A stretch of DNA of 64,000 bases, taken from positions 120,293,582-120,357,581 of the forward strand of contig BTPG01000002.1 in NCBI GenBank assembly GCA_036245525.1, given 5' to 3'. The first letter of the stretch is position 1. Every line of letters starts with the position of its first letter. The position numbers and the translations under genes were made by a program. The notes below the pieces were generated by a model. That model saw only the letters and a program-made list of their open reading frames with translations. It was not told where the DNA came from and did no database searches. Shown in pieces: positions 30,889 to 54,514 of this stretch. The DNA comes from Semisulcospira habei. Taxonomy: Eukaryota > Mollusca > Gastropoda > Semisulcospiridae.

Positions 30889-31085
30889 TTAATCCCCACA
30901 GCCGTATATCCCACATTATTGATGTGTCATTGAACGTCACTGCGTCAGTTGCAGGAGATGGGTCGACCATGATAATTCAAGGGCATTACCAGATCAGCTG
31001 GACGCCGTCCGGCGCCAAGCTGATCTGGCACTACCCTTGAATTATCATGGTCGATCCGCCTCCTGTTGTAGGGCCTTGCGGTTAA
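30889..31085. mobile_element. Hairpin element, family A, TTAA-bounded
   Basis: From TTAATCCCCACAGCC to GGCCTTGCGGTTAA. Both arms carry GATCAGCT where most copies have GATTAGCT, so the pairing is kept. Confidence 0.82.
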
Positions 31086-31149
31086 ATGTGATAATTAATG
31101 ATTTTCCAGTAGGGCCTTGCGGTTAAATGTGATAATTAATGATTTTCCA
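31069..31149. repeat. Short tandem duplication of about 40 bp
   Basis: TAGGGCCTTGCGGTTAAATG through to GATTTTCCA occurs twice in a row, duplicating the end of the family A element with its TTAA. Confidence 0.9.
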
Positions 31150-31500
31150 CTTATCACAGTGACAATTTGTGAACCAGCAAAGCAAATTTTCACTGAGGTA
31201 ATTAATTATTAACTTATTTTTATTCTGGAAAAGGCGGCATGGTCAAACTGACGTGGACGTGCTTGTGCAGCCAATCTATTTCCAAGACCTCGACCTGCCC
31301 TTCCATTAAAAACCCCGGGTGTTTGGCTGCCCTATCTTTTATGCGATAAAAGTCCTGTAATGGCGCAATCGTGTGTCAACCGAATGAACTCCCGGATAGT
31401 TTATAATGACACCTTCTGAAAAGCGGTCGTGTTAAGAATGAGCGGGAGCCAATTTTAATTTTGCTGATATAATCATCTTCTTTTATGCCAGGAGTCTAAC

Positions 31501-31576
31501 TTAACACTACCAGTGCGCATGCAGCCACAAGTGCCGCTGTTCACAGTACCGGTGGCTGCGTGTGCAAGGGGGTTAA
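31501..31576. mobile_element. Hairpin element, family E, TTAA-bounded
   Basis: 76 bp from TTAACACTACCAGTGCGCAT to GGCTGCGTGTGCAAGGGGGTTAA. Confidence 0.82.
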
Positions 31577-31733
31577 CACGCTTCTTTCATCCCCAGAGCC
31601 AAATGTCTGACACTGCAGCGAAATCGTCTTTTACCTAAGCACTAAGCGAATTCGGAGTTCTTATTGGTTTAATGAAACCCCTTTCATGTTGTACAGCAGA
31701 AGTCGGTTTTGAGCGAGTATGAGAGATCAGTCT

Positions 31734-31809
31734 GGCTGTAGCCACCTAAATGATGGTCTTTAATGACAGGTGACACTGGAGCCGCTGAGAGAACACCTGT
31801 CCTTAAGAC
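31734..31809. repeat. Family I element, diverged
   Basis: GCCACCTAAATGATGGTCTT followed by ACAGGTG, then CACCTGTCCTTAAGACCAT. Related to the perfect hairpin at 39465-39536. Confidence 0.6.
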
Positions 31810-32212
31810 CATATTTTTTTTCTTTTAAAAAATAGTGTTTGCTCAAAACTGTTTTTACTACTGTCTAGCGTTATGGTGGTAAACTTTTCTGCCAGTTGGT
31901 GCTGTAACTGAAAAGGACAACCAAGCAGAGCGTCAGCGCTTTCGTGCCAACGCGCTCCATGATTCGATCACTGACCGCCTAAGTGTTTCTGGTGGGGACA
32001 ACGACGTCTGCAAGAAACAATCGGGCAGACGGAGGCCAGATAAAAGGTTATCTACATCGGGTATATGCTAGTACTCGGCTACTCAGTCCGCCGGGACCCA
32101 TTCACACAGGGGTAGGTCGGGCGTGTGTACGTTTGCGTGACCCTAAGCACGTCCAGCCAAGGTTCATTGATATGATTTGCCGATGAACTGGCGATGTGCG
32201 CTGCTCACTGTT

Positions 32213-32416
32213 TTAACTCATTCAGCCCGACGCACGTAGTCCCAAATTTTGGAGGCGTCATCTAACGCCGGGACTATGGACCTGTTGCAGGAGATGGATC
32301 GACCATAATTCAAGGGTAGTGCCAGATTAGCTTGGCGCCGACAGGCGCCAAGCTAATCTGGCACTACCCTTGAATTGTCATCTGCTGTAGTGCGTCAGGG
32401 CTGAATGGCGGGTTAA
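32213..32416. mobile_element. Hairpin element, family A, TTAA-bounded
   Basis: From TTAACTCATTCAGCCC to GGGCTGAATGGCGGGTTAA. Core arms CAAGGGTAGTGCCAGATTAG and CTAATCTGGCACTACCCTTG around CGCCGACAGGCG. Confidence 0.88.
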
Positions 32417-32539
32417 AAATTGGTAACCAAAAATATGATCTTCAAAATTGCAGCATTTGTTATTTCTCAGTTTCTCAGTTTTCCCCCCCTTTTCTACGAT
32501 GATGCTTTGACTGACTTTTCCATCAGTTCTGACACACTA

Positions 32540-32665
32540 GACCATGCTATAAATCGACTATTATATTCCAATGGTGATGTCAGAACAGCTTGGTGCCAAG
32601 AAGCACCAAGCTAGTATCATTCTGGAACCACCCTTGAACTATCATGGTTAAGCCAGTCTCCTGTT
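32540..32665. mobile_element. Hairpin element, family A (diverged)
   Basis: GTGATGTCAGAACAGCTTGG and CATTCTGGAACCACCCTTGA flank GTGCCAAGAAGCAC. Confidence 0.7.
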
Positions 32666-32887
32666 TTACATGTAATGTAGTCTTTACGGGGCGCAAACCC
32701 TAACTCAAATAACTTGATTTGAGAATTTTGACCCTAGAACTTAGCATAAGTAATTTCTGAATTTGATTGCATCCCTTGACAATACTGAAACATAAAGCAG
32801 AAACAATTGGAGCATTTTGCTTGATCCGCGATGCACTAGCCTCCCTCCTGGGACAGACACTGAAAGAGACAAGGGTCTTCGATGCAG

Positions 32888-33107
32888 TTAACTCATTCTA
32901 CCCCAACACCGAAATCCCAACATTTTGCCGTTGTCTTTTGAAGACCGTCTAACGTAGCGCAGGCCACAGGTCGACCATGATAGTTCAAGGGTGATGCAAG
33001 ACTGAATAGCTTGGCGCCCATAGGCGCCAAGCTATTCTGGCATCACCCTTGAACTATCATGGTCGATCTTTATCTTGCTGTGGTGTGTCCGGGGTAGAAT
33101 GAGTTAA
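32888..33107. mobile_element. Hairpin element, family A variant, TTAA-bounded
   Basis: From TTAACTCATTCTACCCC to GGGGTAGAATGAGTTAA. Both arms have GTGATG/CATCAC and the GAATAG/CTATTC form. This variant shares its end with the half copy at 9582-9655. Confidence 0.88.
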
Positions 33108-33660
33108 CGAGAGACGACTACCTCGAATCTGCATTGTGCTGACTCGGAACTGCAGTATCTGTGATTTGTGTGCTATAGCCTGACCTACTTCTGTGCCTTA
33201 GTGATGAATTCTGTGATTCAGTGGCGGAAAACTCCGGTCGGTATTGCCTGGCACTCAAGACCGGGCCCTACTTCTGTTCGGCATTTTACATGTTTAAGCC
33301 TAGGCCGGAATGGCCTTGGTCCCACCTGGCATGGACTACAAGACAAACATTACATTAGCCTGGTGCCGTGCCGGCACTGAAACTGTATCCCAGCGAGCAA
33401 AAGCGGGTCCTTGGGCCGACGTCGGCCCTATGACATTGTGTGCACTGGCGGGGGTTTGCGGCGGGTAGCCGGGATGCACACCAGGTACCTGTTGCCCAAA
33501 TGACGACTGAGTTGACTCTTAGTCTGGTTACTGGAGATACACGCTTCATTCACAGCTGAACACATCGTCCACCAATGTACTTTTAGGAGCTTTTCTAGTA
33601 TTCTTCCCGTTGGAAAAGTTTTTCTAAATGTCCGATACTTAGGACCTGCTCAGTCAAGCT
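33108..33660. other. Intergenic, one family G fragment
   Basis: GGGCCGACGTCGGCCC near 33413 resembles family G, in a GC-richer patch. No gene recognised. Confidence 0.4.
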
Positions 33661-33779
33661 AGGGTATGGATCCGGTTGCTCGGCACACAAACACGTTCAG
33701 TGGAACCCCCTTCCCTCCCCCCTGGATCCTGGGGATGAGGTGCATATGTTTGTCGGACACAATTGTCGAGAGGGAGGGG

Positions 33780-34135
33780 GGCGGAGGACTGAGGAGGGGC
33801 GGGGGGGGGGGGGGGGGGGTAGAGGTGTTATTACTGTTCATATTGACTGAGGATAGACGGAGCTGTGAAATAGAGGAAGGGCTGTTTCAACACCACAACA
33901 CTGTATGACCCCCACCCCCCCCCCCCACCCAACCCCCCAAAAAACAACAACAAACAAACAAACAAAAAACAACAACAAAAAAAACCAACCAACAACAAAA
34001 CCACACTGACGCTGAGTTTACTGCAGCGTCAGCGTTTTTTTTTTTGGGGGGGGGGGGGTGGGGGTGGGGGGTGGGGGTGGTTGGGGGTGAGATGAGATTG
34101 GGTGGGTGAGGGGGTGGGTGGGTGGTGGTGGTGTT
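33780..34135. repeat. Low-complexity G- and C-rich patch
   Basis: Poly-G 33800-33819, C-rich 33911-33937, an AAC-rich run, then TGGGGGTGGG repeats to 34135. Inverted G and C blocks 33911-34060 could pair. Confidence 0.85.
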
Positions 34136-34220
34136 GAAATTGTCCTCAACCGTGGTCACAAGAAAGAAAGCGCAACCTAGTCTCAGTCTACTCTCCCTAA
34201 CACTAACCGATGGCCTCTTC

Positions 34221-34300
34221 TAAACCAGGGCAGTGCCCGATTAGCTTGGCGCCTTTCAAGGCGCCCAGCTAGTCATGCAGTGGAGCAGCCAAGCTCGACT
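34221..34300. repeat. Degraded family A hairpin
   Basis: CAGTGCCCGATTAGCTTGGC, CTTTCAAGG, then CAGCTAGTCATGCAGTG. Confidence 0.55.
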
Positions 34301-35635
34301 GATCTGTCTCCCGCACTCAGTTGAGGCTGGAAGTGAGGGAGCCGCAGTTTTTCTTCGCGAAGATGTTCGTGGCAATGTCGCGATGCAGTGCATACACCGA
34401 AAAGAACACAGTATATAACTCAACGGACACAGAGATTACTCCGAACTGAGGCAGTCGCTACAGCTCCAAAAACACATGGCCCCACGAGCTCCTTAGCATC
34501 CGCGTTATCGCGGAATTGTTTATATTACAGCGGACGGCAGGCGAAGCCGTCCCGTTTCTCACTTTCCTTTTTTGTCCCTTGTCTCCTTGACTGCTTGCGC
34601 AAAATAAGGTGAATTTGTGTGAAATCATTGAAAATTCACATCAACTTCATTTAAAAACAAATGAACTCTAGCATTTTTTAGTGCGTGTACGGGTTAGCGC
34701 ATTTTTTGGGGAAACAATAGGCGCACAGGCCTCTTTTCGTGTTTGTCCTTGCTAAACTACAACATTCTTAGAGAGAGAAAGAGAGATGAAATGAAACTTT
34801 ATTAAGAGAGAGAGAAAAAAAAAAAAAACCAACAACAGCCTAGTGATAATAAAGTGTAAAAAATGGTTATAACTAAATAGTGTATACACGGTATAAGTGA
34901 AGACACAGTCGTACTATCCGTGAACTGAAAAACTCGAAAAGCTTTTGGTCAGGCATGGAGCCGCAGGAGCCAAAGGGAGGGGAGGAAATACGGTCGCAGC
35001 GGGTTTGATATGTGCCAGATATCTCTCACGACAGCTTGATGATAACTGACTCGCACCCACACTTGCCGGAATTCAGGGACCTTTTTTCTCTGTCCGTTGA
35101 GTTATAGACTGAACAGGGGTATCTGCTTTCTACGGTTAACTCGCGTTAGCAATAGACATAGAATCTCATAAGCCCTCGCACCTTGTGACTCGATCTTGAG
35201 CACACAGCCTGTGCTTTCGATACAGGGGTATTTTATCGTGTAGTTACATAATGTGAATCAAGTCGAACACTGAATTCGTGTCACGCTATGATTCCGGCAT
35301 GTAATGGAATCTCTGCCGGCTCAGGGACTCGCCATCAATGCCATACCGGCCACTGATTGCCGCTCAGCATAAGTAAAGCCAAAGGTGGTTCTACTGAGAC
35401 ACTGGGACATTGACGCGGCTGAGGTTCGGTGTTGGAAGAGTTAAATCTACAACGAAGAAGTGTTTTTGCCTGACTGACTGAAGAATCCAGCTGCCAAACT
35501 AGCGTCTTCTGCAGGTGACTTTCAAACTCCTAAGTTTTGTCACATCAGTTTTAGCGGCCCCTGATATCAGTCGAATTTAAAAACCATATCATGTTCTGAC
35601 TCGGAGTTGGAGTTATGACACAAAGCCGCAAATCG
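34301..35635. other. Intergenic, nothing firm
   Basis: AG-rich runs at 34766-34830 with AACTTTATTAAGAGAG resemble an eroded minus-strand LINE tail. A family C half (ATAGAATCTCATAAGCCC) lies at about 35157. No gene recognised. Confidence 0.4.
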
Positions 35636-35759
35636 GCTTTGACAGTTCAAGGGTAGTGCAAAACTGAGCAGCGGCTTGTCATTCCGGCGGCGCCTCAGAC
35701 CTGCATGGTGGCATATATCCTTGTTGAACAGCGATTGAACTACTATGCAGCTGTCGGTC

Positions 35760-35836
35760 ATGACACTGCTGGTTATCTCCCTAGATTCGCTACCGCTGTA
35801 CAGCGGTAACAAATCGAGGGAGACAACCAGTGTCAG
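35760..35836. mobile_element. Hairpin element, family H
   Basis: GACACTGCTGGTTATCTCCC and GGGAGACAACCAGTGTC are the arms, centred on TACCGCTGTACAGCGGTA. A family A half (GTTCAAGGGTAGTGCAAAAC) lies at 35646. Confidence 0.8.
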
Positions 35837-35849
35837 TAGTGCGCTAAAA

Positions 35850-37142
35850 AGCCGGCTATCATTAATGTCAGTTGCAACTTGAACAGAACTGAGTTGCTAC
35901 ACTGAAGGCTACTGAACGGTTCCACTACAGACAGGGCTAAAGTTAACCAGTCTTTTGCCTAGACTGGCCTTGCCGCAGGACAAACGTCGGAGACCGTTTT
36001 CTCCGTGTTTTCGGACGGCAGCCAGCTGACAGATGTGACATAACATTTCCTTCCTCTCGCATCCGACAGCCCATTGTTCAGATTTCGCACCATCGGTTAC
36101 CCTCGTCTTAACTATAGCTGCTTTTAGTCCAGAGAACCTCAGTAAGCAAAGTGCCCTCGGCCGCATTGAGTTGGCTTGGCGCTCACCGGCGGCCGCTGTG
36201 CGTAAGCTAACTGCGTCGATCAGACGTCGGCTTGAGGATCTTACGCGCATTGAGTGTTGGCACAACGTTACAAACCCGCCGCCGGCAACGCCGGAGAACT
36301 TTCTGGTGTTCGCGAGACCGCCGCTAAAGCAGCCACGTGCTTTTATTTATTTACAACCCAGCTGGTTGACCTAGTGAACCCTGAAGGGTCATATGACGTC
36401 ACACGTTTCGGTTAATGATATGAGAGGACGTTCGCCGCGGCTCCGACCTTGGTCGTGACATTGCACAAGCTATGTTTGAGCGAATTTCGTGGTTCCCGAA
36501 GCGTCACTTTTCATTCGCGCTGACAGGGTGTGTAGTTTAGGCATATGAGTTCAGACGGCTACCGTTAAAAAGGCTACATACGTTGAAATCGGTCTTGGAA
36601 TTATCCCTAACAAATCGGCGGCGGTGTCAGCGAACGACCTTGCAGGCGTGCGAGGGTCTAGGTCACGTCCGTAGCGCGTCACTGAGCTCGATCGGCGAGG
36701 AAAACACGAACACTTACGCACAGCACATTCAAAGGCGAGCCACTGTGACTATAGAACCACTGCCGACTATAAATAACGCCGACTACAGAGCGTGGAGTGC
36801 GTGTAGTGTTGAGGCTGTGCGCGGCGGTGGTGCTGTGCTGTGCTGCGTTAGTGTTTACGCCAACACCACCCCCTCACCTGCCTACCGGCCCCCACCATCA
36901 TGTTGACGAGTGTTCATAATACGGAAGCGCTGGGCTGTGTAACCACAAAGTCTCGCAGTCTCATTTCACGTGGAGTGGTGCTGCCTTCCTCGCCATGGCT
37001 TGTCTTCAATATTCGGGACTCTCTTCGTCTGTACGAAGCTGTGTGACGGTCAGTTTATTTTCTTCCTTCTGTGTACAGCGTGTTGGATCGAAACACGAGT
37101 GTTCACCGGCATCAGTAGCTAGTCGGGACTGGTCGGGCAATA
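35850..37142. other. Upstream region of PPP1R3
   Basis: GC-richer than the surroundings and free of hairpin elements. Contains the CRE-like site at 36394. Promoter and leader exons of PPP1R3 are expected here, but no start site or splice pattern could be fixed. Confidence 0.4.
36394..36401. promoter_or_regulatory. CRE-like TGACGTCA upstream of PPP1R3
   Basis: Perfect palindromic cAMP-response element, 742 bp before the first Met of the PPP1R3 frame and in GC-richer sequence than the surroundings. A role in transcription is inferred only. Confidence 0.3.
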
Positions 37143-38780
37143 ATGTACTTCTGTCCGTGCTCCTGCTCCAAACCGGACGGTGAAACAGAAGAGGATGTGT
37201 TGATTTGCTTGCCGAGAAATCTCTCCTACGTCGGCGAGAGTTATCTGGACCGTTTCAGTGTGAGCTCTGCGTTCGTGCATAATCCAAAAATAGAGAAACA
37301 GCTCCTGCAGGCAGATGTAGAGGAGCACTACTTAATAGCCGGCGCCAGCCACTGCGCAGAAGTGTTACAGATCGAGAAAGAACAACAGGGACATAATCAA
37401 CAACAACTACAACTCAAAAACGATCAAGCCATGGCAGACGACACGTCACTTAGAGACGAGACTTTGCTGTCTCGGACAATGTGTGGTCACGGTAGGGGTC
37501 CGGACGCTTGTGACATTAGTGCCACAGCCACGGTAACAATAAGGGCTTCCCGGTCCTCTACGAGGTACGCCAGGCCCCCTCCCTCCCCCTCCCTGTCCAT
37601 CCCTGCCTCCTTCCGACCCTACCTGAAGGTGGACACGAGGGGCGATAGCGATTTGGATGGGGTGACGGTCGATGGGTGTCGCGAGAAGGACTCGACGTGT
37701 GTGGTGGAATCTCCGGACTCGGACTTGGTGAGCGAAGAGGGGATCTTCGTCAACATGATGGACGACCTGGACGGGGACGGGGCCGACAGTGCTAACTGCA
37801 AGTCCACGGCCAGCGAGGCCAGCGACGACACGTGCGTGTCGGGCGACTCCATGTACTACAGTCCTGACGATCTGGGGTGTCTTGAAGACGAAGAGGCGCG
37901 GGCCGAGAGACAACAGACCCTGGAGGAGGCCGTGCAGCATGCGGCCATCAGCCTGCCCCCAGACCCTCCAGAACCCGGTACAGACTCAGACGTGCAGCTG
38001 ACAACCAAGGTTAGTGACATGAAAATCACGCTCAATGATATTCCCTTCTCCAAAGAGGAGAGGCAGCGATCCTTGCTGGACCTTGTCTCTCCCGACAGTC
38101 CCGTGTACGAGGATCGCGAGTTCAACTTCACCAAGGCGGAGCTACGTAAATCCGCATCCCTCAAGTCGTCCAAGACACCGCCCGGAACCCCGAGGCGTAA
38201 AAAGGTTGTGAGGTTCGCGGACGCCATGGGGCTGGACCTGGAGTCTGTGAGACACATCCTTAACCTCGAGTCCCCGCCCAAGATCCCGGCCTCCGCCATG
38301 AAGGATTTGCTGCCTGGTTTGGGTCAGGAGCGCAAGGAGATGGGGACAAAATACCTGACGCCGTGTTTTGAGCAGCCCGGGTGTGAGGGCACGTTCATCC
38401 AGCGGGTGCTGAGCGAGAAGGTGAGTCTGGAGAACGCCATCGCCGTCACGGGCACCAACATCACCGGCGTCGTCCGCGTGGCCAACATCTCTTTCCACAA
38501 GAACGTCCGCGTGCGCTTCACCACTAACGGCTGGACAACCTTCCACGACATCGCCGCCTCCTACGTTCAGAACTCGAACGACGGACCCACGGATCGCTTC
38601 AGCTTCAGCATCGTGGCACCAGCCGACTTCGTCCCCGGGTCAAAGTTGGAGTTTGCAGTGAACTTCTGCGCTAACGGGACAGAATATTGGGACAATAACC
38701 GCGGTAAGAACTACGTGTTCGAGTGCTTCGCCAAAACCATCCCCACTGAGGCGGAAAATTCATGGATGCATTTCCTCTGA
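37143..38780 (+). CDS. PPP1R3: PPP1R3-family glycogen-targeting subunit of protein phosphatase 1
   Basis: Single open frame of 545 residues. This family tethers PP1 to glycogen and steers dephosphorylation of glycogen synthase and phosphorylase. The PP1-docking RVxF-type site is KKVVRFAD near residues 353-360, followed by the family segment MGLDLESVRHIL. The last 140 or so residues form a CBM21 glycogen-binding domain, with VRVANISFHKNVRVRF, W..FHD and EYWDNNRGKNYVFEC. The N-terminal 340 residues are low complexity, Ser/Asp/Pro-rich and without a known domain. Start is uncertain: Met1 (37143) has a weak context, while Met97 (37431) has GCCATGG and gives 449 residues. Position beside LYRM4/FARS2 argues for the PPP1R3G lineage, but sequence alone places it only in PPP1R3. 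No introns are seen in the coding part. Confidence 0.93.
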   Translation: MYFCPCSCSKPDGETEEDVLICLPRNLSYVGESYLDRFSVSSAFVHNPKIEKQLLQADVEEHYLIAGASHCAEVLQIEKEQQGHNQQQLQLKNDQAMADDTSLRDETLLSRTMCGHGRGPDACDISATATVTIRASRSSTRYARPPPSPSLSIPASFRPYLKVDTRGDSDLDGVTVDGCREKDSTCVVESPDSDLVSEEGIFVNMMDDLDGDGADSANCKSTASEASDDTCVSGDSMYYSPDDLGCLEDEEARAERQQTLEEAVQHAAISLPPDPPEPGTDSDVQLTTKVSDMKITLNDIPFSKEERQRSLLDLVSPDSPVYEDREFNFTKAELRKSASLKSSKTPPGTPRRKKVVRFADAMGLDLESVRHILNLESPPKIPASAMKDLLPGLGQERKEMGTKYLTPCFEQPGCEGTFIQRVLSEKVSLENAIAVTGTNITGVVRVANISFHKNVRVRFTTNGWTTFHDIAASYVQNSNDGPTDRFSFSIVAPADFVPGSKLEFAVNFCANGTEYWDNNRGKNYVFECFAKTIPTEAENSWMHFL

Positions 38781-38784
38781 TTTC

Positions 38785-39303: not shown

Positions 39304-39307
<4 letters not shown>

Positions 39308-39341: not shown

Positions 39342-39464
39342 TGGAGCGTCGGATTGCCAGACCGAATTATAACTTGTGCTTAGCTTCAATACAGCAGAAC
39401 CTGCTTTCAGCGACCACCCTTTTTGGGGATCATTTGTCATTAAAGATCATTTGTCATTAAAAGT

Positions 39465-39536
39465 GGCACCTGTCTTTAGAGACCATCATTTAGGTGGCTG
39501 TAGCCACCTAAATGATGGTCTCTAAAGACAGGTGCC
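39465..39536. mobile_element. Perfect hairpin, family I
   Basis: Two 35-base arms, starting GGCACCTGTCTTTAGAGACC, are exact inverse copies separated by two bases. It sits inside a longer repeat (about 39390-39650) with AACCTGCTTTCAGCGACCAC. Confidence 0.92.
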
Positions 39537-39711
39537 AATTTTTGCCCTTCAACTTCAAGACTTGTTTTGAGAAAGCACCTGTCTCAGTTTTTAAGACCAC
39601 TGCTTTCGTCATGCGAAAAAGGTGGTTGCTCAAAACAGCGGATCAGCTGCACCCCTCTCTGTGGCGGTAACTGCACAGTTCAATGATTTCCGCAGTGTGA
39701 AGAGCCTGGGG

Positions 39712-40628: not shown

Positions 40629-41288
40629 AGGGGAACACTAGTGAAGTGCTAGACTGGTGTTAAACAAACCTTTTTCCCAATGGGGTGGGAGTTATACTCA
40701 GTAGATGCTCTTTGTGTGTGATATAACTGATAAATTTTCAGTCATGTCTTTGAGCAGGGTGCACACTGTGCTGCTGAAGTGAACGCTTAGTTTTCCTATA
40801 GAGCTAGTGTACGCGTGTTGTCTTCTGTGCTACACTGACAAGTATCATAATAACTGTTACGAAACGAAAATCATATTTTGATCATCATCTGCTATTAATG
40901 TGTGATTCGTGTGTGTTCTTTACTACTGTGTGAGTGTACTTTACTTACAAGCTGTGGTAGATAACTTACAAGCTGTGGTGTGGTAGATAAATTGTATACG
41001 TTTTCCTCGATCTGTATATTAGTGCACTGTATTTATTTATTCTTCTCATGGTGCAATGACAAGAAAAAATAGATACTGTACACTCACACACATCCTAGTG
41101 AAAACGCATCAACAAACAATCTGTGTCCCATCCTTTGCTGTTTTCTGAAGAGATTCTTTCGATGTTACTGTGCATTTTTGGAATGTTTTGAGTGCAAAAC
41201 ATGAATTTTTTTCTCCACCGACTTTGAGTCCATTCGTTCAGTTGAGGTCGTGCCAGGTATCATCATTGTAGTGCATCTCAGTCTTTAA
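40629..41288. other. Intergenic, nothing recognised
   Basis: A short tandem duplication CTTACAAGCTGTGGT (about 40944-40985); otherwise unremarkable AT-rich sequence. Confidence 0.45.
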
Positions 41289-41380
41289 TTAACCTTTTGG
41301 CTGTCGGTCACGCATTTTGTCGAGGTGATTCCTGCAGGAATCACCTCAACAAAATGCGTGACCGACAGCCCAATTGTTAA
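41289..41380. mobile_element. Hairpin element, family D, TTAA-bounded
   Basis: 92 bp. Arms CTGTCGGTCACGCATTTTGT and ACAAAATGCGTGACCGACAG. Both arms carry GTCACGC where other copies have GTAGCG. Centre GATTCCTGCAGGAATC. Confidence 0.9.
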
Positions 41381-41777
41381 TCATTTATCGGTTTCCACTC
41401 TGGTATGTGATTCTTGACCGTACGAGTTCTACCAGAAGTTCTAAAAACATAAACCGGTGCATTTGCCTCAGCGTTTGAACTAATTGTGAATGGTGATGCT
41501 TGTGTCACAGTGAAAACTCCATATTAATATATTTGTTTTGTTTGTTGAATCATGCTTTCTACTCATTTCAGTTTCTGAATTTGTCCCATTCGTTTTTGTG
41601 ATTTTTTCCCCCGGGTTTTTGTAGGGATCCACACGTTTACCGCTGGCGATGAAAATCATGTTGCTGTATATGGGTTTGTGCTGTAAACGTTTTTCAGTGG
41701 TTTGTCAAGACTGATGGGTTTTTTTTTTTTTGTGTGTGTGTGTGATCGTAATTGTGCTAACTTTCGACGTCAATCTC

Positions 41778-41867
41778 TTAACCCTTAGACTGTCGGTAGC
41801 GTTTTTTGTCGCGATGATTCCTGCCGTAATCATCGCAACAAGAACCGCTACCGACAGCCAAGGGTAA
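41778..41867. mobile_element. Hairpin element, family D
   Basis: Starts TTAACCCTTAGACTGTCGG; arms GGTAGCG and CGCTACC; centre GATGATTCCTGCCGTAATCATC. The right TTAA is mutated to GTAA. Confidence 0.87.
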
Positions 41868-41956
41868 ATCTTACTGTGGTTGACCTCGTCACACGATCAT
41901 GAGTACTGAAGAAGAATGAGGTACTGACTAGCGAACTACAAGGCTGCGCCTCTCTT

Positions 41957-42047
41957 TTAACCCTTTGGCTGTCGGTAGCGCTTTTCTATAGGTGATTCCT
42001 TGCAGGAATCGCCAAGACTAAAAGCGCTACCGACAGCCAAACGGTTG
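41957..42047. mobile_element. Hairpin element, family D
   Basis: Starts TTAACCCTTTGGCTGTCGG; arms GGTAGCGCTTTT and AAAAGCGCTACC. The right end is GGTTGA. Confidence 0.87.
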
Positions 42048-45012: not shown

Positions 45013-45104
45013 TTAACCCTTTGCGTGCCGGTAGCGGTTTTTGTCGCGATGATTTCTGTAGGAATCATCGCGACTAAAACCGCTAGCGACACGCTAAGGG
45101 TTCA
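45013..45104. mobile_element. Hairpin element, family D
   Basis: Starts TTAACCCTTTGCGTGCCGG and ends CGACACGCTAAGGGTTCA. Both arms carry GCGTG/CACGC where the other copies have GGCTG/CAGCC. Confidence 0.87.
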
Positions 45105-45180
45105 GTACGGGACGTCTATGGGCCAGCATGACACGGTCGTGAAACAGGAAGATTATTGTGCTGAGTCAGAAGGTCAGAAG

Positions 45181-46482: not shown

Positions 46483-46492
46483 TTGTCTTCAG

Positions 46493-46550
46493 GCCACCAT
46501 TGGCCATCACTGAGTAGCTGTGTGTGCGGGCCAACGGCGGCCTGAAGAAC
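46493..46550. repeat. Family G fragment
   Basis: AGGCCACCATTGGCC and GGGCCAACGGCGGCCT are degraded arms. Confidence 0.5.
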
Positions 46551-46745
46551 ATTTGTTAACTGGGTATTTTGTATATTATAAGAGTACGATGTTAATACAA
46601 CACGTCAGTATAACCATTTTTGTGCTGTGTTTGCTTGTGTTAATCTGTGTGGCCGATAGCATTATGCTGTCAAATGTCGACAAAGTGACCCCAGCGGTCA
46701 ATATTCTTACATTTCAGAGTTGTTCTACGTACCGTTTCGGGAGCA

Positions 46746-46873
46746 CTGCCCAGACAGACTCGGGACTACGCCACATGTACTCTTTTATTCAAATGAGATC
46801 ATGCTTACTATCTTATTTGAATAGAACTTAGAAGTGTACGTGTGGCGTACTCCCCAATTGAGTCTATCTGCCG
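46746..46873. repeat. Single-copy long hairpin (K)
   Basis: CAGACTCGGGACTACGCCAC and GTGGCGTACTCCCCAATTGA pair loosely; inner arms ATTCAAATGAGA and TTATTTGAAT. Confidence 0.65.
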
Positions 46874-47314
46874 CAAACGGTACGAGCGTCTAAAGACTGC
46901 AAAACAAAAACAGTGTTCAACTCTGAAGGATTTTCTCCAGAATCCTTTGCATTGTTAACTTATTTACACTGACGTTTTGTAGTACATGTATGTTTTCTAT
47001 GTAACTAGGTTATATCCTGTTTGCTTTTACTTTGTTGTTCAAGGAAATACTGATACGTGCACACTGACAAGCCCTGATATCAAACATTGCAATGTATATG
47101 TAGCCATAGAAAAGGCTGGTCTGTTAGACCCTCGCTGAACAGGCCTATACATTACATAGGAAAGGAAACGCAAACATTACGTCAGGGATCGGCAAGTCGC
47201 GTCTCTCCGTTTACTTTCTCATAAACCATATATACTCCTCTTTGTAGGCCTATAGCTTCTGGAACTAGATGTAACTCGCTCCTCGGCGGCGTTCTTTTGT
47301 GGCAACAGATTTTT
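46874..47314. other. Intergenic, nothing recognised
   Basis: No repeat family or gene signal seen. Confidence 0.4.
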
Positions 47315-47396
47315 TTAAAGACATTCGAGACTTGCTGCATTGGGATACGCGGCTTTAGGCCGCGTCTCGGAATGCGGTACGTCTCGAATGAGTTAA
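47315..47396. mobile_element. Hairpin element, family F, TTAA-bounded
   Basis: From TTAAAGACATTCGAGACTTG to GTACGTCTCGAATGAGTTAA; inner arms GATACGCGGC and GCCGCGTCTC. Confidence 0.85.
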
Positions 47397-47536
47397 CGCT
47401 TAAGTCGATTAAAGTGTCATCTATAGTTTTGATAGACTTGTGGCTAATTTTATGCACCTCATCCTTTGAAGCTGCTCAGCTCATCCCCCCTCCCCGGCCC
47501 CGAAGACACTACAGCAAGAAGTAGCCCAGCTGTGCT

Positions 47537-47622
47537 TACTAGTTCAAAGGTAGTTTTTGCCAGATTAGTTTGGCACCTGGGATGGCGCCATGCTAATCTG
47601 GCACTACCTTTGAACTATCAGT
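47537..47622. mobile_element. Hairpin element, family A
   Basis: TAGTTCAAAGGTAG and CTACCTTTGAACTA: both arms have AAAGG/CCTTT where other copies have AAGGG/CCCTT. Confidence 0.85.
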
Positions 47623-47850
47623 TCTCCCGCACGGTTTCTACACTGACTTTAGAGACACGTCCCAAATTTGTTTAGGTGTGAAATAGTCAATATTGTATTG
47701 TTCATTTGCTGGTGTGGTATCTCTTTCCATCGGCATTATTTAGCGGGAAGTTTCGCGAACAATCATTATCGCCACATATCTACTGATATTAACCAGATGT
47801 AGCGAGTCACGTCATTAACGACGCAACCCATATTTGATTAGTATACCGGC

Positions 47851-47937
47851 ATTTTACCCTTTGGCTGTCTGTAGTGCTTCTTGTTCAGATTTGATTCATG
47901 TAGAAACACAAAGCGCTACCAGACATGCATAGGGTGA
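47851..47937. mobile_element. Hairpin element, family D (diverged)
   Basis: TTTACCCTTTGGCTGTCTGT and GCGCTACCAGACATGCATAG are the arms. Confidence 0.7.
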
Positions 47938-48832
47938 ATATTGATTTTTGATATTTGCTGCACGGTATTCAGTGGATGCTTGCTCAGGATTATCTTTGAA
48001 AAACAGTATTGCTTTCATTAATTTCATTCCCCAGTTATATCCCAACTCCCTTCTCACCAGTTGCTTTCAGTTTCCTCGATAATCGGCGTTTTTGTAAAAC
48101 CGCAGTTTACAAGTTTTATTTTCACTTTTTGTAACGTTTACAAAAAGTTACTCGTTATTTGCTTTCTTAATTTGTGTGTTCCTTTTGACCTTGAAGTGTG
48201 TTTTTCATTGGGCTATTTTTGTTAGCAGAATACCTCAAGCCAGTGAACTGATGAGAAACTGCGTTTTGCAAATTTGTTTTCTAGGTCAAAGTGCTTTCAG
48301 CGTCCGATGTCGCAAGACAGTCATTGCAGTCACTGGAGATATAAATATGTGAGCTTCGCATTATGTTGGTGTACTGTGTCAGACATTTTCTGCCGCTATT
48401 ACATGATCTCGACCCGTAGTTACGCGTCTTTCCGCCGAACGGTGTCGTCAGCAGCAGACACGGGGTTTATCTTGTTCCCTGAACTGAATGGGTGTGATTA
48501 TACACTTGATGTGATTTCAACAGGATATTTATCTTTAGCTCTGTGCGTCACACGTATTTAAACTTACTCAACCGACTGCATATTCGTTGTTTGTCTTGCT
48601 TTTTGATTTTTTTTTTTGGTTATTTTTTTTTTTACAACGGCCTTTTGAATCTTACACACTCCAATCACTTTACAGCTTCACTCAGATATTATTATCGCAA
48701 ACAGAGTACCGACCATTTTGACGATACGACATTGCCAAATTAATCTCTTTGAATCACTGTTGTTCTCTTTTGACGGAATTGTGTTATTTTCATTGTGTTT
48801 TCCTCAGTCGTCGCTGCTTCGAATTCACGAAG
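47938..48832. other. AT-rich intergenic, nothing recognised
   Basis: GTTTACAAGTTTTATTTTC and nearby GTAACGTTTACAAAAAGTTAC are local inverted motifs; no gene or known element. Confidence 0.4.
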
Positions 48833-48885
48833 TTAACTCATTCGAGACGGGTCGCATCCGGATACGCGGTATCATACAACCCAAC
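48833..48885. repeat. Family F half element
   Basis: GTTAACTCATTCGAGACGGG followed by TCCGGATACGCGG; no right arm. Confidence 0.6.
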
Positions 48886-48889
48886 AATC

Positions 48890-49650
48890 CGCCGCGTTCC
48901 GGGGCTTGTCCCATGCGATGTAGTCCCGCAGTCGTCGGCTTACATCCTCAGTTGCGCACGCGCACAGCATGACGTCACGCCATGCGTCTTGTGTTTGACA
49001 CCGCACGTGCTACTCCATCTGCGCCAGTGTCTCGCTCGCTCAGCTGGCAGTATCCAGCACTTGTACGAATGTAGTAGTAACTTACGGTGTGTACCGTTGC
49101 TGACGTCAACCCGCGTGCGAAGAACGTGCGTGTGTTCATACTGAGTAAGCGGCGCTCATTTGCATGTAACCTCACTTTGGGGATGAGGTTGGTTAGTCAG
49201 TTTCCAGTGTGGGTCAGTTTTGATGATGGACCGGCCTTTAGTTACCGTTCTTACAGGGTGGCCAACTCTTTTGTAAGTGACGGCCGGAAAAAAAATAGTT
49301 GCCAAAACCTGGAAAGGACTGCTATATCAGTATGTGTGAGTGTGGGTATGTTCGTGTGCTTATTGGGTGGAGCGATGAATGGATGGAACCGGGCGAACGA
49401 TGGACTGATTGAAACGGTTAGTGGTATCGACGCCGGCTTAGCCCAAGACAGCATTGCACATCAGCATTGCACGGTTACATGCAAGTGCCGCGCCACAATA
49501 TAGGTGCACGTGCGGCGCGCGTTCTTTTGCAACCCTCATGTTAATTCCCTGCTCACTTTTTCTCGCGGATAAATCACCAGACTGAGACCTAGACAGATAC
49601 GCTGCCGAGAGCTGGAGGGAAGGTTGTGGGTTTCACTGATTGACCACGTC
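48890..49650. other. Intergenic, GC-richer, one CRE-like site
   Basis: TGACGTCA at 48970-48977 in a CpG-rich patch (48895-49135) could be a promoter of an unidentified transcript. The open frame 49087-49503 has no recognisable domain. Confidence 0.3.
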
Positions 49651-49852
49651 ATTTTAGCTCATTTAGCCCCGACGCACTACAGCAGGACATGATCGACCAT
49701 GATAATTCAAGGGTAGTGCCAGATTAACTTGGCGCCACCAGGCGCCAAGCTAATTTGGCACTACCCTTGAATGTTATTATCATTGTTGATCTGTTTCTGC
49801 AACCCGGCGGTACAGTCATTTGAACTATGCGGCCTTGGGTTAAATGAGTTAA
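49651..49852. mobile_element. Hairpin element, family A, joined to family E
   Basis: Core arms CAAGGGTAGTGCCAGATTAA and CTAATTTGGCACTACCCTTG, centre GGCGCCACCAGGCGCC. It ends GGGTTAAATGAGTTAA, and the last TTAA opens the next element. Confidence 0.85.
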
Positions 49853-49913
49853 CCGCTTTGTGCATGCAGCCACCGGTACACAGTACCAGTGGCTGCACGC
49901 ACAAGAGGGTTAA
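49849..49913. mobile_element. Hairpin element, family E, TTAA-bounded
   Basis: 65 bp: TTAACCGCTTTGTGCATGC, CAGCCACCGGTAC, GTACCAGTGGCTG, and GCACGCACAAGAGGGTTAA. Confidence 0.9.
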
Positions 49914-50160
49914 TCAGCAGGGAGGATAGCTGATAGGGCCGTGGGAGAAGTTTTCTTGGTTCGACGTTCTTGTTTTACCGTGAAGGTGGTTTGGCAGAGG
50001 ACAGGGCGCCTTCGCTGCCTCTGAGTCTCCAATTTAGAGCGAAGCAAGCCGGTGCTTGTGAGTTGCACGTGCTGAGATAAATTGCTCGAGTGCGCGTATG
50101 GTTAAAAACGACCTACTTGTCGCAAACAAACAGTGCAGTCTCGCCTTGACTGCTTTAACA

Positions 50161-50213
<53 letters not shown>
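50161..50213. repeat. (ATT)n microsatellite
   Basis: About 17 ATT units. Such runs often mark LINE 3' tails, but no LINE body is recognisable upstream. Confidence 0.95.
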
Positions 50214-50214
<1 letters not shown>

Positions 50215-50548
50215 GACTGGAACTGAATGCATGCTTCTTTGCGACCCCTTCTCAGTAGCTGGTCACTGTTTCAATCATCTAAATGACAATGGGAATACTG
50301 ACTGGCAAAGTACTAGCGCGATTTTTGTTAAGTTGAGATTACATAATTAGATGTGAAGCATCCCTTAAATGTGTGCTCGGAAAATGACTGGAAAACGGCA
50401 AACTCGGATATGAATTGTGATTTTTTTTTTCATTGTGTCTTGTAGAACAATATTGAATAATTATGATTTCATTTCATTGAGTGTCATTTTCTGTTGTCAG
50501 ATCTTTTCGATGTGGGAGTTGTAATTAGTATTGAATGTTATCCCACGG

Positions 50549-50622
50549 TGTGTGTGCTGGTCTGTGATTTTGGACCTTACTTCTTATGGCCGTAAGGTCC
50601 AAAATCACAGGCCAGCACACAC
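50549..50622. mobile_element. Hairpin element, family B
   Basis: GTGTGTGCTGGTCTGTGATT and AATCACAGGCCAGCACACAC, with TTGGACCTTAC and GTAAGGTCCAA inside. Confidence 0.9.
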
Positions 50623-50908
50623 AGGTACAATGCTATATATGACGTTGATGTGTCACACTATCACATGATCAATGTAACATAGTGAAGTAAATAGCAGGTG
50701 TGTGTCACGAGCACATTATTCATTAAGCCGAGTGAACCGGTTTTCCTCTCGACTGTAGAATACAGTGTTGCCGTATGATAACATATGTGTACAGTGGATT
50801 TCACTTTTAACAATGTGTATTAAGTTGTTTAACCAGTTTTTTTGTTATTGTTGTCTTTTTTTGCTTGTTTGTGTCTGAGGTACGAGATTCAAGTTTCAAT
50901 CGACTTTA

Positions 50909-51123
50909 TTAACCCATTCAGCTCTGACGCACTACAGCAGGAGATGGGTTGATCCATGATAATTCAAGGGTAGTGCCAGATTAGCATGGCGCCTGTCGGC
51001 GCCAAGCGAATCTGGCACTGCCCTTGAATTATCATGGTCGATCCATCTCCTGCAACTGGTGCATAATCATTAGATGACGCCTCCAAAATTTGGGAAATAC
51101 GGCCGTCGGGCTGAATGAGTTAA
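50909..51123. mobile_element. Hairpin element, family A, TTAA-bounded
   Basis: 215 bp from TTAACCCATTCAGCTCTGAC to GTCGGGCTGAATGAGTTAA. Core arms CAAGGGTAGTGCCAGATTAG and CGAATCTGGCACTGCCCTTG. It follows AATCGACTTTATT, so it may sit in a LINE tail. Confidence 0.9.
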
Positions 51124-51328
51124 TTAATCATCTTCAATCAAAGTTATTACTCCCCTGTGAGGGACTGATAAAGTTTATTGAATTCTGAATCTGCAATATA
51201 CATGTAAACGTCATAAGCGGAGAATGACAGGACTAGGATTTGGAGGATGACACGACTATTTGAAATTTTGGCGTTCGTTTTCCGGAATATGAGACCCAAA
51301 TCGCAAACTGATATATTGCTGATAATAA

Positions 51329-51463
51329 GTTGAAGACCACCCTGCAAAATGGTCATGGTTTCAAATGAGCACAACTTCGTCATATTTTTAAGATTTTGTC
51401 TTGAAACTTTTGACCAAGACTGTACGTGACTTCGTGTACAGTCATGTTCAAAAGTTTCAAGAC

Positions 51464-51494
<31 letters not shown>

Positions 51495-51552
51495 AAATTT
51501 TATAACGTTGTGCTCATTTGAAATGATTACCAATTTTCAGGATAGTCTTTAA
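51329..51552. repeat. Long single-copy inverted repeat (L) with an A tract
   Basis: Arms of roughly 90-110 bp: AAGACTGTACGTGACTTCGT forms the turn; TTTGTCTTGAAACTTTTGA pairs with TCAAAAGTTTCAAGACAAA; TTTCAAATGAGCACAAC pairs with GTTGTGCTCATTTGAAA. One arm carries a poly-A expansion (51466-51489). Confidence 0.85.
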
Positions 51553-51715
51553 TCCTTTTGTTAGTGGCATAGTCGTAAACTGAATTTCAAATCAGATATG
51601 TGTCTGCCTCCGATGTCTTGGTTAGAAACGCGTAGAAAATATATATTTTTTCCTTTATAATATTTCCCTTGGACCTCCTTTCCCCCTGTAAATGTTCCCT
51701 TCTATCTGATATGTA

Positions 51716-51788
51716 AATGTGTCCTGGTCTTGATTTTAGACCTTACGGACATAGACCGCAAGGTCCAAAATCACAGACCACAACACAA
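51716..51788. mobile_element. Hairpin element, family B
   Basis: GTGTCCTGGTCTTGATTTTA and AAAATCACAGACCACAACAC; inner GACCTTACGG and CGCAAGGTC. Confidence 0.8.
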
Positions 51789-52262
51789 AAGTGTGGCGTT
51801 TTAACCCCTTTCCCGCCTGTAAATGAAGTCCCCAATCCTACAGCTCTTGCCTTTGCCGTGTCCGCAAATCATGAAATAAACAGAATCTTGTACATAATGC
51901 ACATGTGTGATAGCAGCGCCGCTGATGTATGCTCATATAAATTATACTTATATGCCAATCGGCTGTTGTTGAGTCAGTGATATAAAAAGTTGATATGAGA
52001 AATGTTACAAAATGGGTAGCTTATCATGGATTGTATTCAGTCGCACAGTTGGCACAGAGAACACAAACAGAATGGTTTAATTTCAGATGTTTGCATCCAT
52101 CTAAAAACAAGAAAGATACATCGTCATACTTTCACTGGATTTTCAAAACAAGAGTAGTCAGCTTAATTATTGGGCTTCGTCTCAGTCTTGAGTGTTTTTT
52201 TTTTTGGGTTGGTTTGTTTACTAACAACACTGTTTGTGACAACTGTAGCGTGACTGAATCAT

Positions 52263-52347
52263 TAACTAAACACATTCGTGGCGCGCGGCATTCGGAAACG
52301 AGGCTTTATGCCGCGCATCTGGATGCGGCACGTCTCGAACGAGTCAA
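52263..52347. mobile_element. Hairpin element, family F
   Basis: CATTCGTGGCGCGCGGCATT and GATGCGGCACGTCTCGAACG; centre GAGGCTTTATGCC. Confidence 0.75.
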
Positions 52348-52507
52348 TACCAACGTTCAGCTGGTACTGTCTTCGCCGCACCAGAGGCATCTGCCATACA
52401 TCATATTTGACGTATGTAATGTGACGTCAGATCATGACGTATGGCAACTGCGTGCAGTTCAAATGACGACACATTGCCTCTGGCAGCGTACAGCCCGGCA
52501 GTGCCAA

Positions 52508-52651
52508 TCAACCCATTTACTGCTAGTAGAGGCGGACTGTGTTTCTGAAATCAACGCCAAAGAGCCCCAGCCCTCCAAGGAACACGGATACAAATTGGGA
52601 TCAGCAAGGGGCATAGATCCACATGACAGACCCCGGCAGTGAAGGGGTTAA
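52508..52651. mobile_element. Family C element with its right arm deleted
   Basis: Starts TCAACCCATTTACTGCTAG, retains AAGGGGCATAGATCCACATGA and ends GGCAGTGAAGGGGTTAA. Confidence 0.75.
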
Positions 52652-52887
52652 GCCAGGTCGCCCATAGGCTGTGTACATAGCATTCATTCGTGTTAATGAT
52701 TAATACCTCACTCATTCTGACTTTATAGAAACGAACTTCCAGCTTCCACGGCACTGTGATAGCAAGTTGTTATCAGTCTGCATACAGCATCCGCCTTGGA
52801 GAATTTCAGCTAAATGGACCGCAAGTCTGGAGAGAAGATTGTTACTACAAGCAGCGCAGCTGGCAGAACAAGTCCCATGTTGTTGAA

Positions 52888-52958
52888 GTAACTCCCAAAT
52901 GCGGGCATCCCCCGCGACTGTGAACAGTACCTGTGGCTGCAGTCGTGAGGGGGTTTAA
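52888..52958. mobile_element. Hairpin element, family E (diverged), joined to family F
   Basis: CAGTACCTGTGGCTGCAGTC followed by GTGAGGGGGTTTAA. The left arm is poorly kept. Its TTAA (52955-52958) is shared with the next element. Confidence 0.65.
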
Positions 52959-53031
52959 CTCATTTAAGAGGTGCTGCAACAAAAGATCCGCGCGACGCGT
53001 ATCCGTATGCAACACGTCTAGAGTGAGTTAA
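52955..53031. mobile_element. Hairpin element, family F, TTAA-bounded
   Basis: From TTAACTCATTTAAGAGGTGC to CAACACGTCTAGAGTGAGTTAA; the inner arms are short and diverged. Confidence 0.75.
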
Positions 53032-53185
53032 CTAGCGCCTCCGTCTGTACCTGTGGCGGGGCTGAGATGGGACTCGCTTGTTTTGCTGGCTGTTTATTTC
53101 TGGGCGAGTTGCATAAAGGTAAGCCGAACGGCCTCAGGCACTGCCCTACAGCTGTCATGGCCGGTCCATTTCCCTCTGTGGCGTC

Positions 53186-53402
53186 TTAACCCCTTCACTG
53201 CCAGTGGATGCAGCTTGCCTTTTTGAAATCAATGTAAATTCAACATCAAAGTACCCAGCCATCAAAGGAATTGAGGCCGGACAAAATGGTTTCAGTAAGA
53301 GGCATAGATCATCATAAGCCCCCGCAACACCCGGGGTTCATGAGGATCTATACCTCTTGCAGTTGTGTGTTGTTAAGTTTTTCTCGGCAGTGAAGGGGTT
53401 AA
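53186..53402. mobile_element. Hairpin element, family C, complete, TTAA-bounded
   Basis: 217 bp from TTAACCCCTTCACTGCCAG to CGGCAGTGAAGGGGTTAA. The core pairs AAGAGGCATAGATCATCATAA with TCATGAGGATCTATACCTCTT. Serves as the reference copy for this family. Confidence 0.9.
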
Positions 53403-53709
53403 GGATGAACGTGTTTAGCTGTCATCATCCCTGACGTGGATTTGGATTTTTGTGTGATGTACAGCATTTCTGTTCTGACCTGCATGCAACTCGACCCGGA
53501 AGTTGTTGACGTTGGTTCTCGGCGCACTGTCCCAGTACTTGTAGATAGCCCTTAGCGCGTAATGACACCATTTATGTTTTCAGTTTGGTAGAGATCTGTA
53601 GTTGAATAAAAATGTACTATTATGGGCATTTTTTAAAATGCTGAACCCCACGTTGTTATGAAGCAAGTAAAAAGTAACAAACATGGTGTTCAAAGTACTG
53701 AGGTACTCT

Positions 53710-53794
53710 TTGTGTGTGTGTGCGCGCGCACTTTCCTGCGTGTGTGTGTGCGTGCGTGCGTGTGCGTGCGTGTGTGTGCGTGTGTGTGTGTGTG
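53710..53794. repeat. (GT)n/(GC) microsatellite
   Basis: Alternating GTGT and GCGT repeats, interrupted. Confidence 0.93.
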
Positions 53795-54115
53795 TTTATT
53801 ATGTTGTTTCACCGACGAGCAAAAGTATGGCGCTATCGACTGAATCATCGAAAACATTGAAGTTGAAATGTCTCGTTTCTTTTTGCTCGTCAGTATGGTT
53901 GTAGACGTAGAATATTATTACTTCACCATCAGTGTGAGGTAAACTGAGGAACTTCAGCACAATATGCTTTGGCAGTGTGTCCAGAAATGATGATGAAACC
54001 ACTCCTGTTTCGTCAGCTTAGTATACACGTAAACTTCATACCACACTGCACCACCTCAACTGCTTGTATTTCATATCCAGCGCCAAATGTGTCGGCGGTT
54101 ATGGCCAAATCCATC

Positions 54116-54190
54116 GACTATGAAAGTTCAAGGGTAGCGCCTGGTTAGCTTGGCGCCTCTCTTGAGCTATCATCATGGTGTAATCCATGT
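54116..54190. repeat. Truncated family A hairpin
   Basis: GTTCAAGGGTAGCGCCTGGT, then the centre GCTTGGCGCC; most of the right arm is deleted (CTCTTGAGCTATCAT). Confidence 0.65.
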
Positions 54191-54303
54191 TCATTGACCA
54201 GAATGTAATGTTGGCTTATGATTTGTTTACAATTCGAGATACGGGGTCCTTTAATTAATATCGACTGTAATAGCTAAGAAAATATAACCTCTGGAGTGGG
54301 TCT

Positions 54304-54514
54304 TTACCTTGTGACCTCACGGCAGCATTTCCCAACTTTTGGAAGCGTTAGCTAACGACTATGTAGCAGTTGCAGGTGATGGATTGACCATGATAATTCG
54401 AGGGTTGTGCCAGATTAGCTTGGCGCCTAAGGCGCCAAGCTAATCTGGCACTACCCTCGAATTATCATGGTCAGTCCATCACCTGCTGCCAGGCGTCGGG
54501 GCTAAATGGGCTAA
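54304..54514. mobile_element. Hairpin element, family A
   Basis: Core arms ATAATTCGAGGG and CCCTCGAATTAT: both have CGAGGG/CCCTCG where other copies have CAAGGG/CCCTTG. Ends GGGGCTAAATGGGCTAA. Confidence 0.87.

What the first reader, a model, noticed from the sequence alone, without database searches (positions are those of the whole stretch)
30889..54514. Both arms of one hairpin share copy-specific substitutions
Base changes that set a copy apart from its family appear in both arms, so pairing is kept. Family A: CGAGGG/CCCTCG at 54304-54514; AAAGG/CCTTT at 47537-47622; GATCAG/CTGATC at 30889-31085; GTGATG/CATCAC at 32888-33107. Family D: GTCACGC in both arms at 41289-41380; GCGTG/CACGC at 45013-45104. 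Independent mutation of two arms would break pairing instead. This implies arm-to-arm copying (hairpin template switching or gene conversion), or regeneration of the palindrome at each transposition, or selection on the folded RNA or DNA.
Basis: seen in the sequence. Interest (0 to 1): 0.8.

Follow-up and report, generated by a model that had tools for sequence, protein, structure and literature searches.

The report
Hairpin repeats whose arms change together
Very common short mobile-DNA hairpins, probably in an animal genome, sometimes carry the same base change on both arms far more often than chance, probably because one arm is now and then copied onto the other, although most changes still hit one arm only and several of the reported cases are simply inherited.

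Summary
The six paired changes are real but selected: the same families carry far more unpaired ones. The repeats are TTAA-flanked, MITE-like hairpin elements (family A about 216 bp, D about 92 bp) in a 1.98-Gb genome. Three examples (32888, 45013, most of 41289) are states shared with relatives. In 102 family-A copies, 29 rare paired changes stand against 279 rare single-arm ones, with 3.1 paired expected under shuffled partners. At one arm position genome-wide, paired T>C is 415 (3.0 expected; 615 single-arm) and paired T>A 80 (1.8 expected; 473 single-arm), partly inherited, but the T>C copies sit on unrelated outer sequences. Paired and single changes have the same transition/transversion mix. 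One copy's right arm carries bases matching a left-arm deletion junction. Against this, own-arm divergence (8.0%) is barely below that between relatives (8.7%); in 42 copies inside another repeat, paired changes are not above shuffle expectation; paired indels are almost absent. Shared mismatches exclude regeneration at each transposition. Best reading: occasional arm-to-arm templating, mostly before the present insertion, on top of inheritance; selection on source hairpins is the main rival.

The parts
54304..54514 (+). Family A (A1) hairpin element; paired A>G (CGAGGG/CCCTCG) at arm column 29 and A>T at column 6; 2 unpaired columns
   Evidence: folded as single-stranded DNA -79.4 kcal/mol, z -14.8
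47498..47620 (.). Degenerate family A copy; AAAGG/CCTTT paired G>A at column 31; too low-scoring for the counted groups
   Evidence: same paired change in L093 and L164
30889..31100 (+). Family A (A2) copy; GATCAG/CTGATC paired T>C at column 45, plus 9 unpaired arm columns
   Evidence: 415 genome copies with the paired state
32887..33108 (+). Family A (A3) copy; GTGATG/CATCAC is the A3 subfamily state; 2 unpaired columns
32211..32418 (+). Family A (A2) copy, 1 unpaired column, no paired change
50909..51123 (-). Family A (A2) copy, 5 unpaired columns, no paired change
49654..49798 (-). Family A (A1) copy, 7 unpaired columns
28743..28828 (.). Family A related hairpin core in a different outer sequence
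41288..41381 (.). Family D palindrome; GTCACGC in both arms, mostly D2 subfamily states
45013..45105 (.). Family D palindrome; GCGTG/CACGC shared with L027:3008
41777..41870 (.). Family D palindrome
41957..42046 (.). Family D palindrome

Best explanation
These are short non-autonomous hairpin elements with inverted ends at TTAA. Many paired differences are ordinary subfamily inheritance. Besides these there is a real, recurrent process that puts a base change of one arm into the other. The best-supported form is occasional DNA-level arm-to-arm templating (quasipalindrome correction or template switching at the hairpin), with short tracts, mostly in the lineages that produced the present copies; copying in place after insertion is at most rare. 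Shown: the excess, its recurrence on unrelated backgrounds, its concentration in the hairpin, the unbiased spectrum, and one apparently templated insertion. Inferred: the replication mechanism and the timing.
For: Rare paired 29 vs 3.09 expected. A1 partner-site correlation 0.31 (37 alleles) vs 0.005 for neighbours in one arm (1067 comparisons). Column 45 genome-wide: consensus 31,334, T>C 615 single / 415 paired, T>A 473 / 80, against 3.0 and 1.8 expected. Paired T>C copies are no closer to each other in outer sequence (0.313) than to scanned copies (0.300) for 16 A1 copies; for only 4 A2 copies 0.170 vs 0.200. Paired transversions are as common as among single changes (23 of 42 vs 186 of 392, p = 0.42). 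L027:5154: left-arm deletion junction GTTCACCGAAGGG, right arm CCCTTCGGTGAAC with four extra bases that 0 of 20 fetched relatives (20 of 39) have there. L050 carries on its right arm alone part of a haplotype that L026:3343 has in both arms. L126 has in both arms a change that 5 other nested copies have on the left arm only. Terminal repeats show a weaker excess (7 vs 2.7 expected, 202 single). Palindromic loops in copies with a paired column-45 change, hand count 14 of 142 vs 3 of 250 (p = 1e-4); after an estimated removal of what looks like a second family 9 of 130 (p = 0.004).
Against: Own-arm divergence is only slightly below between-copy divergence. Nested set of 42 copies: 0 rare paired vs 0.19 expected with 60 single at the 10% threshold, 1 vs 0.73 with 72 single at 20%, so no in-place excess; the further paired G>C clade lies at a column with many other changes (7 left, 4 right Fitch events), and L126's right-arm change also occurs alone in two other copies. 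Carriers of paired changes have no fewer arm mismatches (p = 0.34-0.35). Paired indels almost absent: 1 automatic hit that is probably spurious and 1 one-base deletion pair in a copy of what looks like another family, beside 35 insertions and 38 deletions in 162 copies; the L027:5154 case was found by eye. Some 'rare' paired alleles are large subfamilies (T>G at column 45: 42 of 50 listed doubles, hand count). The family-D excess is weak (5 vs 1.5 expected, 121 single, in 30 copies; 4 vs 0.77, 55 single, in the 21 of D2).
Confidence: 0.55

Rival explanations
1. Two ordinary mutations in sequence, kept because amplifying sources need a well-paired hairpin (selection on the folded DNA or RNA in sources).
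For: Arms are about half as diverged as the other parts in scanned copies (A1, 22 copies: arms 6.7 and 7.8% vs 14.7 and 18.2%; A2, 11 copies: 5.2 and 5.4% vs 12.2 and 10.7%), while inside the nested host repeat arms evolve at least as fast as the rest (71 Fitch events in 92 arm sites vs 134 in 215 other sites), so the constraint acts on sources. Carriers of paired changes do not look older. Paired indels are almost absent.
Against: Mismatches are shared by many amplified copies, transversions are not depleted, single-arm G.T and A.C mismatches are about equal (111 vs 95), and an apparently templated insertion exists.
Confidence: 0.22
2. Simple subfamily inheritance of changes already present in sources explains every pair.
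For: True for 32888, 45013 and most of 41289, and for most T>G at column 45.
Against: Paired T>C occurs on unrelated outer sequences and many loop types, and paired T>A with many loop types; neighbouring sites show no linkage while partners do. It also leaves open how sources became paired.
Confidence: 0.1
3. Ectopic gene conversion between copies moves whole hairpins with both arms changed.
For: Would put paired alleles on unrelated backgrounds; column 35 A>G resembles the state of the A3b relatives.
Against: Loops 12 nt from column 45 are diverse among paired copies; 8 of 29 rare paired alleles are seen in one copy only.
Confidence: 0.1
4. The palindrome is rebuilt from one arm at every transposition.
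For: Would give paired changes and near-perfect young copies.
Against: Shared mismatches at A2 columns 12 and 34; A1 column 6 has all four states (35 A/A, 11 T/T, 6 T/A, 3 A/T of 57); only 3 of 162 copies have zero arm mismatches.
Confidence: 0.03

Closest known systems
Template-switch homogenization of short inverted-repeat arms (quasipalindrome mutations; yeast and bacteria)
   Same: One arm becomes the template for the other and differences between arms vanish. PMC8604942 (abstract and passages seen) and PMC3820800 (abstract and passages seen) describe such changes.
   Different: Here the arms are 46-57 bp in a very abundant mobile element, tested by counting copies and not in strains; no replication or repair genetics.
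Template switching proposed as origin of compensatory changes in RNA hairpins (PMC8794818, passages seen)
   Same: Proposes that paired changes in stems, and matching loop changes, come from copying one side onto the other.
   Different: Here no RNA function is known, and most mutations remain unpaired.
TTAA-inserting MITEs (piggyBac or Kolobok type; recalled; KolobokP, PMC9587614, seen only in a search listing)
   Same: Short, no coding sequence, inverted ends, TTAA at the ends, huge copy number.
   Different: A long near-perfect internal hairpin beside a non-palindromic segment; no transposase was sought.
Conversion of terminal repeats in insertion sequence ISWpi1 (PMC3004938, passages seen)
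   Same: Left and right repeats of one element become identical.
   Different: Bacterial insertion sequence with inversion of the inner part; here terminal repeats show a weaker pairing excess than the hairpin.

Membership tests
MITE | Short, dispersed, very high copy number | tested here: met
   About 216 bp; 68 hits in 264 kb of window plus 20 stretches of 10 kb at preset places
MITE | Terminal inverted repeats | tested here: met
   TTAACCCATTTA.../...TAAATGGGTTAA and variants
MITE with TTAA duplication (piggyBac/Kolobok type) | TTAA target-site duplication shown by an empty site | tested here: inconclusive
   TTAA at both ends in 77 of 126 copies, at one end in 38; no empty site sought
MITE with TTAA duplication (piggyBac/Kolobok type) | Autonomous partner with transposase and matching ends | not tested
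   No search made
Quasipalindrome template-switch mutation | Changes extend identity between the arms beyond chance | tested here: met
   29 vs 3.09; 415 vs 3.0 and 80 vs 1.8, partly inherited. Not met in the nested set alone
Quasipalindrome template-switch mutation | New bases traceable to the other arm, with direction | tested here: met
   L027:5154, one case
Quasipalindrome template-switch mutation | Indels copied as often as substitutions | tested here: inconclusive
   Paired indels almost absent in 162 copies; many deletions remove the homology needed
Quasipalindrome template-switch mutation | Dependence on replication direction and repair genes | not testable with these tools
   Needs strains
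Conserved structured RNA | Known family match or wobble-biased intermediates | tested here: not met
   No Rfam match at the elements at gathering thresholds; G.T 111 vs A.C 95

The most novel reading that the evidence does not exclude
In an abundant genomic hairpin with no known RNA role, DNA arm copying alone makes fully compensated base pairs, transversions included, reach a sixth to two thirds of the single-arm frequency at one site (counts that include some inherited pairs). This would mean that covariation by itself does not prove RNA structure, and that this genome is a ready natural assay of the process.
Probability: 0.4. Interest if true: 0.6.

Novelty: new member of a known kind. Interest (0 to 1): 0.4.

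Why it matters
Paired changes in hairpins are commonly read as proof of selection on RNA structure. An extremely numerous hairpin with recurrent paired changes, single-arm intermediates and non-palindromic control sequence in the same copies would let the rate of arm-to-arm copying be measured directly, and separated from inheritance and selection.

Tried and rejected
Regeneration at each transposition: rejected because of shared mismatches.

Strand bias: an early G.T over A.C excess (76 vs 43) suggested strand-specific mutation or RNA selection; it shrank to 111 vs 95 with more copies and was dropped.

Palindromic loops: the first tally (14 of 142 vs 3 of 250) was partly confounded. Five of the seven palindromic T>A copies align poorly to family A and look like another hairpin family; the corrected 9 of 130 uses my estimate of that family's share among the unfetched copies. 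The T>G part of the tally (4 of 42) was counted by hand; the other loop tallies were checked.

Column 45 T>G looked like a rare paired change in my sample but is a large subfamily, so part of the 29 'rare' pairs may be inherited too. Fewer mismatches in paired copies, expected from whole-arm conversion, was not found. (a window gene against phages) was uninformative. One search was a failed script.

Rows dropped before counts: 69 of 91 family-A hits had enough of both arms and were kept. Groups then left out A1/A2 copies scoring under 100 and A3 copies under 150, and the nested duplicate L010:2580 (the other, L017:3684, had already fallen out). L148 (score 49) stayed. Column 45 was excluded. 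The copies labelled 'scan' in my scripts come from the window and L002-L028; L002-L008 were fetched as relatives of 54304, so they are not wholly unbiased.
Full report
What it is. The window lies on contig C2 of a 1.98-Gb genome in 507 contigs; the eight contigs sampled are 178 to 344 Mb long. The window carries an open frame with a CBM_21 domain; that the host is an animal is my inference. The hairpins belong to two dispersed families. Family A is about 216 bp: an inverted end at TTAA, a roughly 50-nt non-palindromic segment, then a 46-57-bp arm, a short loop, the second arm and the other end. Family D is a nearly perfect palindrome of about 92 bp, often with TTAA at the ends. In 264 kb (the window plus 20 stretches of 10 kb at preset places) there are 68 family-A and 11 family-D hits. 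The 54304 copy, folded as single-stranded DNA, has -79.4 kcal/mol against a mean of -27.7 for shuffles. No Rfam family matches the elements at gathering thresholds.

The six examples. All are present. The one at 32888 is the A3 subfamily state. 45013 shares its pair with L027:3008, and 41289 shares four paired columns with 16 to 20 of 20 fetched relatives. 54304 CGAGGG is paired in none of 27 fetched nearest relatives, though it is single-arm in two, and paired again in L171 and L087. 47537 AAAGG recurs paired in L093 and L164. 30889 GATCAG is one of 415 paired copies.

Is it more than chance? Within four groups of related copies (102 in all) I compared rare alleles with a shuffle of right arms between copies: 29 paired, 3.09 expected, 279 single-arm. 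In copies from the window and L002-L028 alone it was 16, 2.31 and 138. With 40 more copies, column 45 left out: 42, 4.89 and 392. The same test on terminal repeats gives 7, 2.69 and 202, so the effect is strongest in the hairpin. In A1, partner sites on opposite arms correlate at 0.31 on average (37 alleles) while sites within 15 nt in one arm correlate at 0.005, so the pairs are not parts of large shared haplotypes. The paired fraction is lower in the outer 14 arm columns (6 of 122) than in columns 15-42 (33 of 269; p = 0.028). Columns 43-56, partly fixed by how 40 copies were chosen, have 3 of 43.

Genome-wide counts at one position. Exact patterns across the hairpin centre count 31,334 consensus hairpins, 615 with T>C on one arm, 415 with T>C on both, 473 with T>A on one and 80 on both. 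Independence predicts 3.0 and 1.8 paired. Any double variant totals 5,355; of the 50 listed, 42 are paired T>G, which is a large subfamily, and 4 are non-complementary (hand count). Twenty T>C paired copies were fetched (of 415). The sixteen in A1 differ from each other in outer sequence as much (0.313) as from scanned copies (0.300); the four in A2 show 0.170 against 0.200. T>C pairing therefore has many origins, although the TGAT loop is over-represented (15 of 50 against 4 of 50 in the consensus class), which points to some shared descent. Of 13 fetched T>A paired copies (of 80; seven were chosen for palindromic loops), six look like another hairpin family, so part of the T>A count is inherited there. 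Pattern GATAATGCAAGGGTAGTGCCAG (column 27 T>G) has 638 arm hits; of the 98 copies listed, 2 have it in both arms, so pairing is far from automatic.

Direction and intermediates. In L027:5154 a left-arm deletion left the junction GTTCACCGAAGGG, and the right arm carries its complement, with four extra bases that none of 20 fetched relatives has there. L050 has part of the haplotype of L026:3343 on the right arm alone, while L026:3343 has it in both. One A3 copy sits inside a larger repeat that was itself multiplied; 42 such copies were compared. A tree from non-arm columns puts 17 copies with a paired G>C at column 4 in one clade, together with five of mixed state; that column changes often (7 left, 4 right events). 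Copy L126 has in both arms a change that five other copies have on the left only, but two further copies have it on the right only. By the shuffle test the nested set shows no excess (0 vs 0.19 expected with 60 single; 1 vs 0.73 with 72 single), so copying in place is at most slow. Arms there change at least as fast as the rest (71 events in 92 sites vs 134 in 215), whereas among scanned copies arms are about half as diverged as the rest. Constraint or homogenization therefore acts mostly on the source lineages.

Negative results. Own-arm divergence is 8.0%, against 8.7% between a copy's left arm and right arms of its three nearest relatives, and 10.5% against all others (57 A1 copies). Copies with paired changes have no fewer mismatches. 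Paired indels are almost absent. The family-D excess is weak (5 vs 1.5 expected, 30 copies). Mismatches at A2 columns 12 and 34 are shared by 13 and 9 of 24 copies, which excludes strict regeneration at each transposition.

Mechanism. Transitions and transversions are about equally represented among paired and single changes, and G.T and A.C mismatches are roughly balanced (111 vs 95); neither fits RNA selection through wobble pairs. Templating of one arm by the other is a known process (PMC8604942, PMC3820800, PMC8794818; passages seen). I take it as the likeliest source of the recurrent pairs, at 0.55, with selection on sources as the main rival. The loop association (weakened) is suggestive only.

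Novelty. The searches, judged by listed titles and abstract starts in an open-access library, showed no paper reporting this in a MITE family. The process is known; the element family is a new member and the scale is unusual.

Noticed in passing
window 10870-10985 (-): 5S rRNA-like match just above Rfam threshold (40 bits, cut-off 38), possibly a 5S-derived repeat.
   Followed up: no
window 37143-38780 (+): 545-aa open frame with a CBM_21 domain, like glycogen-targeting subunits of protein phosphatase 1 (that name is recalled; the domain is).
   Followed up: partly
window 55688-57484 (+): Two reading frames with reverse transcriptase (RVT_1) matches (the first below Pfam's cut-off), a LINE-like element.
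   Followed up: partly
window 31064-31144: A tandem duplication of about 40 bp (GTAGGGCCTTGCGG...TTTTCCA) at the right end of the 30889 copy.
   Followed up: no
L017:5423-6280, L010:2385-3251 and 39 further places: A larger repeat carrying an A3 hairpin element inside it, multiplied genome-wide; useful for dating events in place.
   Followed up: yes
L069-L088: A3b copies show many different deletions next to the loop in one arm, as if the hairpin is a deletion hotspot.
   Followed up: no
L188-L192, L207: What looks like another hairpin family with the same core but different outer sequence, with GATAAGC arms; five of these six were chosen for palindromic loops TATA or TGCA.
   Followed up: partly
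L007:974-1166, L026:1072-1275: Two family-A hairpins arranged head to tail within one hit, satellite-like.
   Followed up: no
window 39459-39542, 50549-50623, 54633-54704: Other near-perfect palindromes not hit by the family A and D queries.
   Followed up: no
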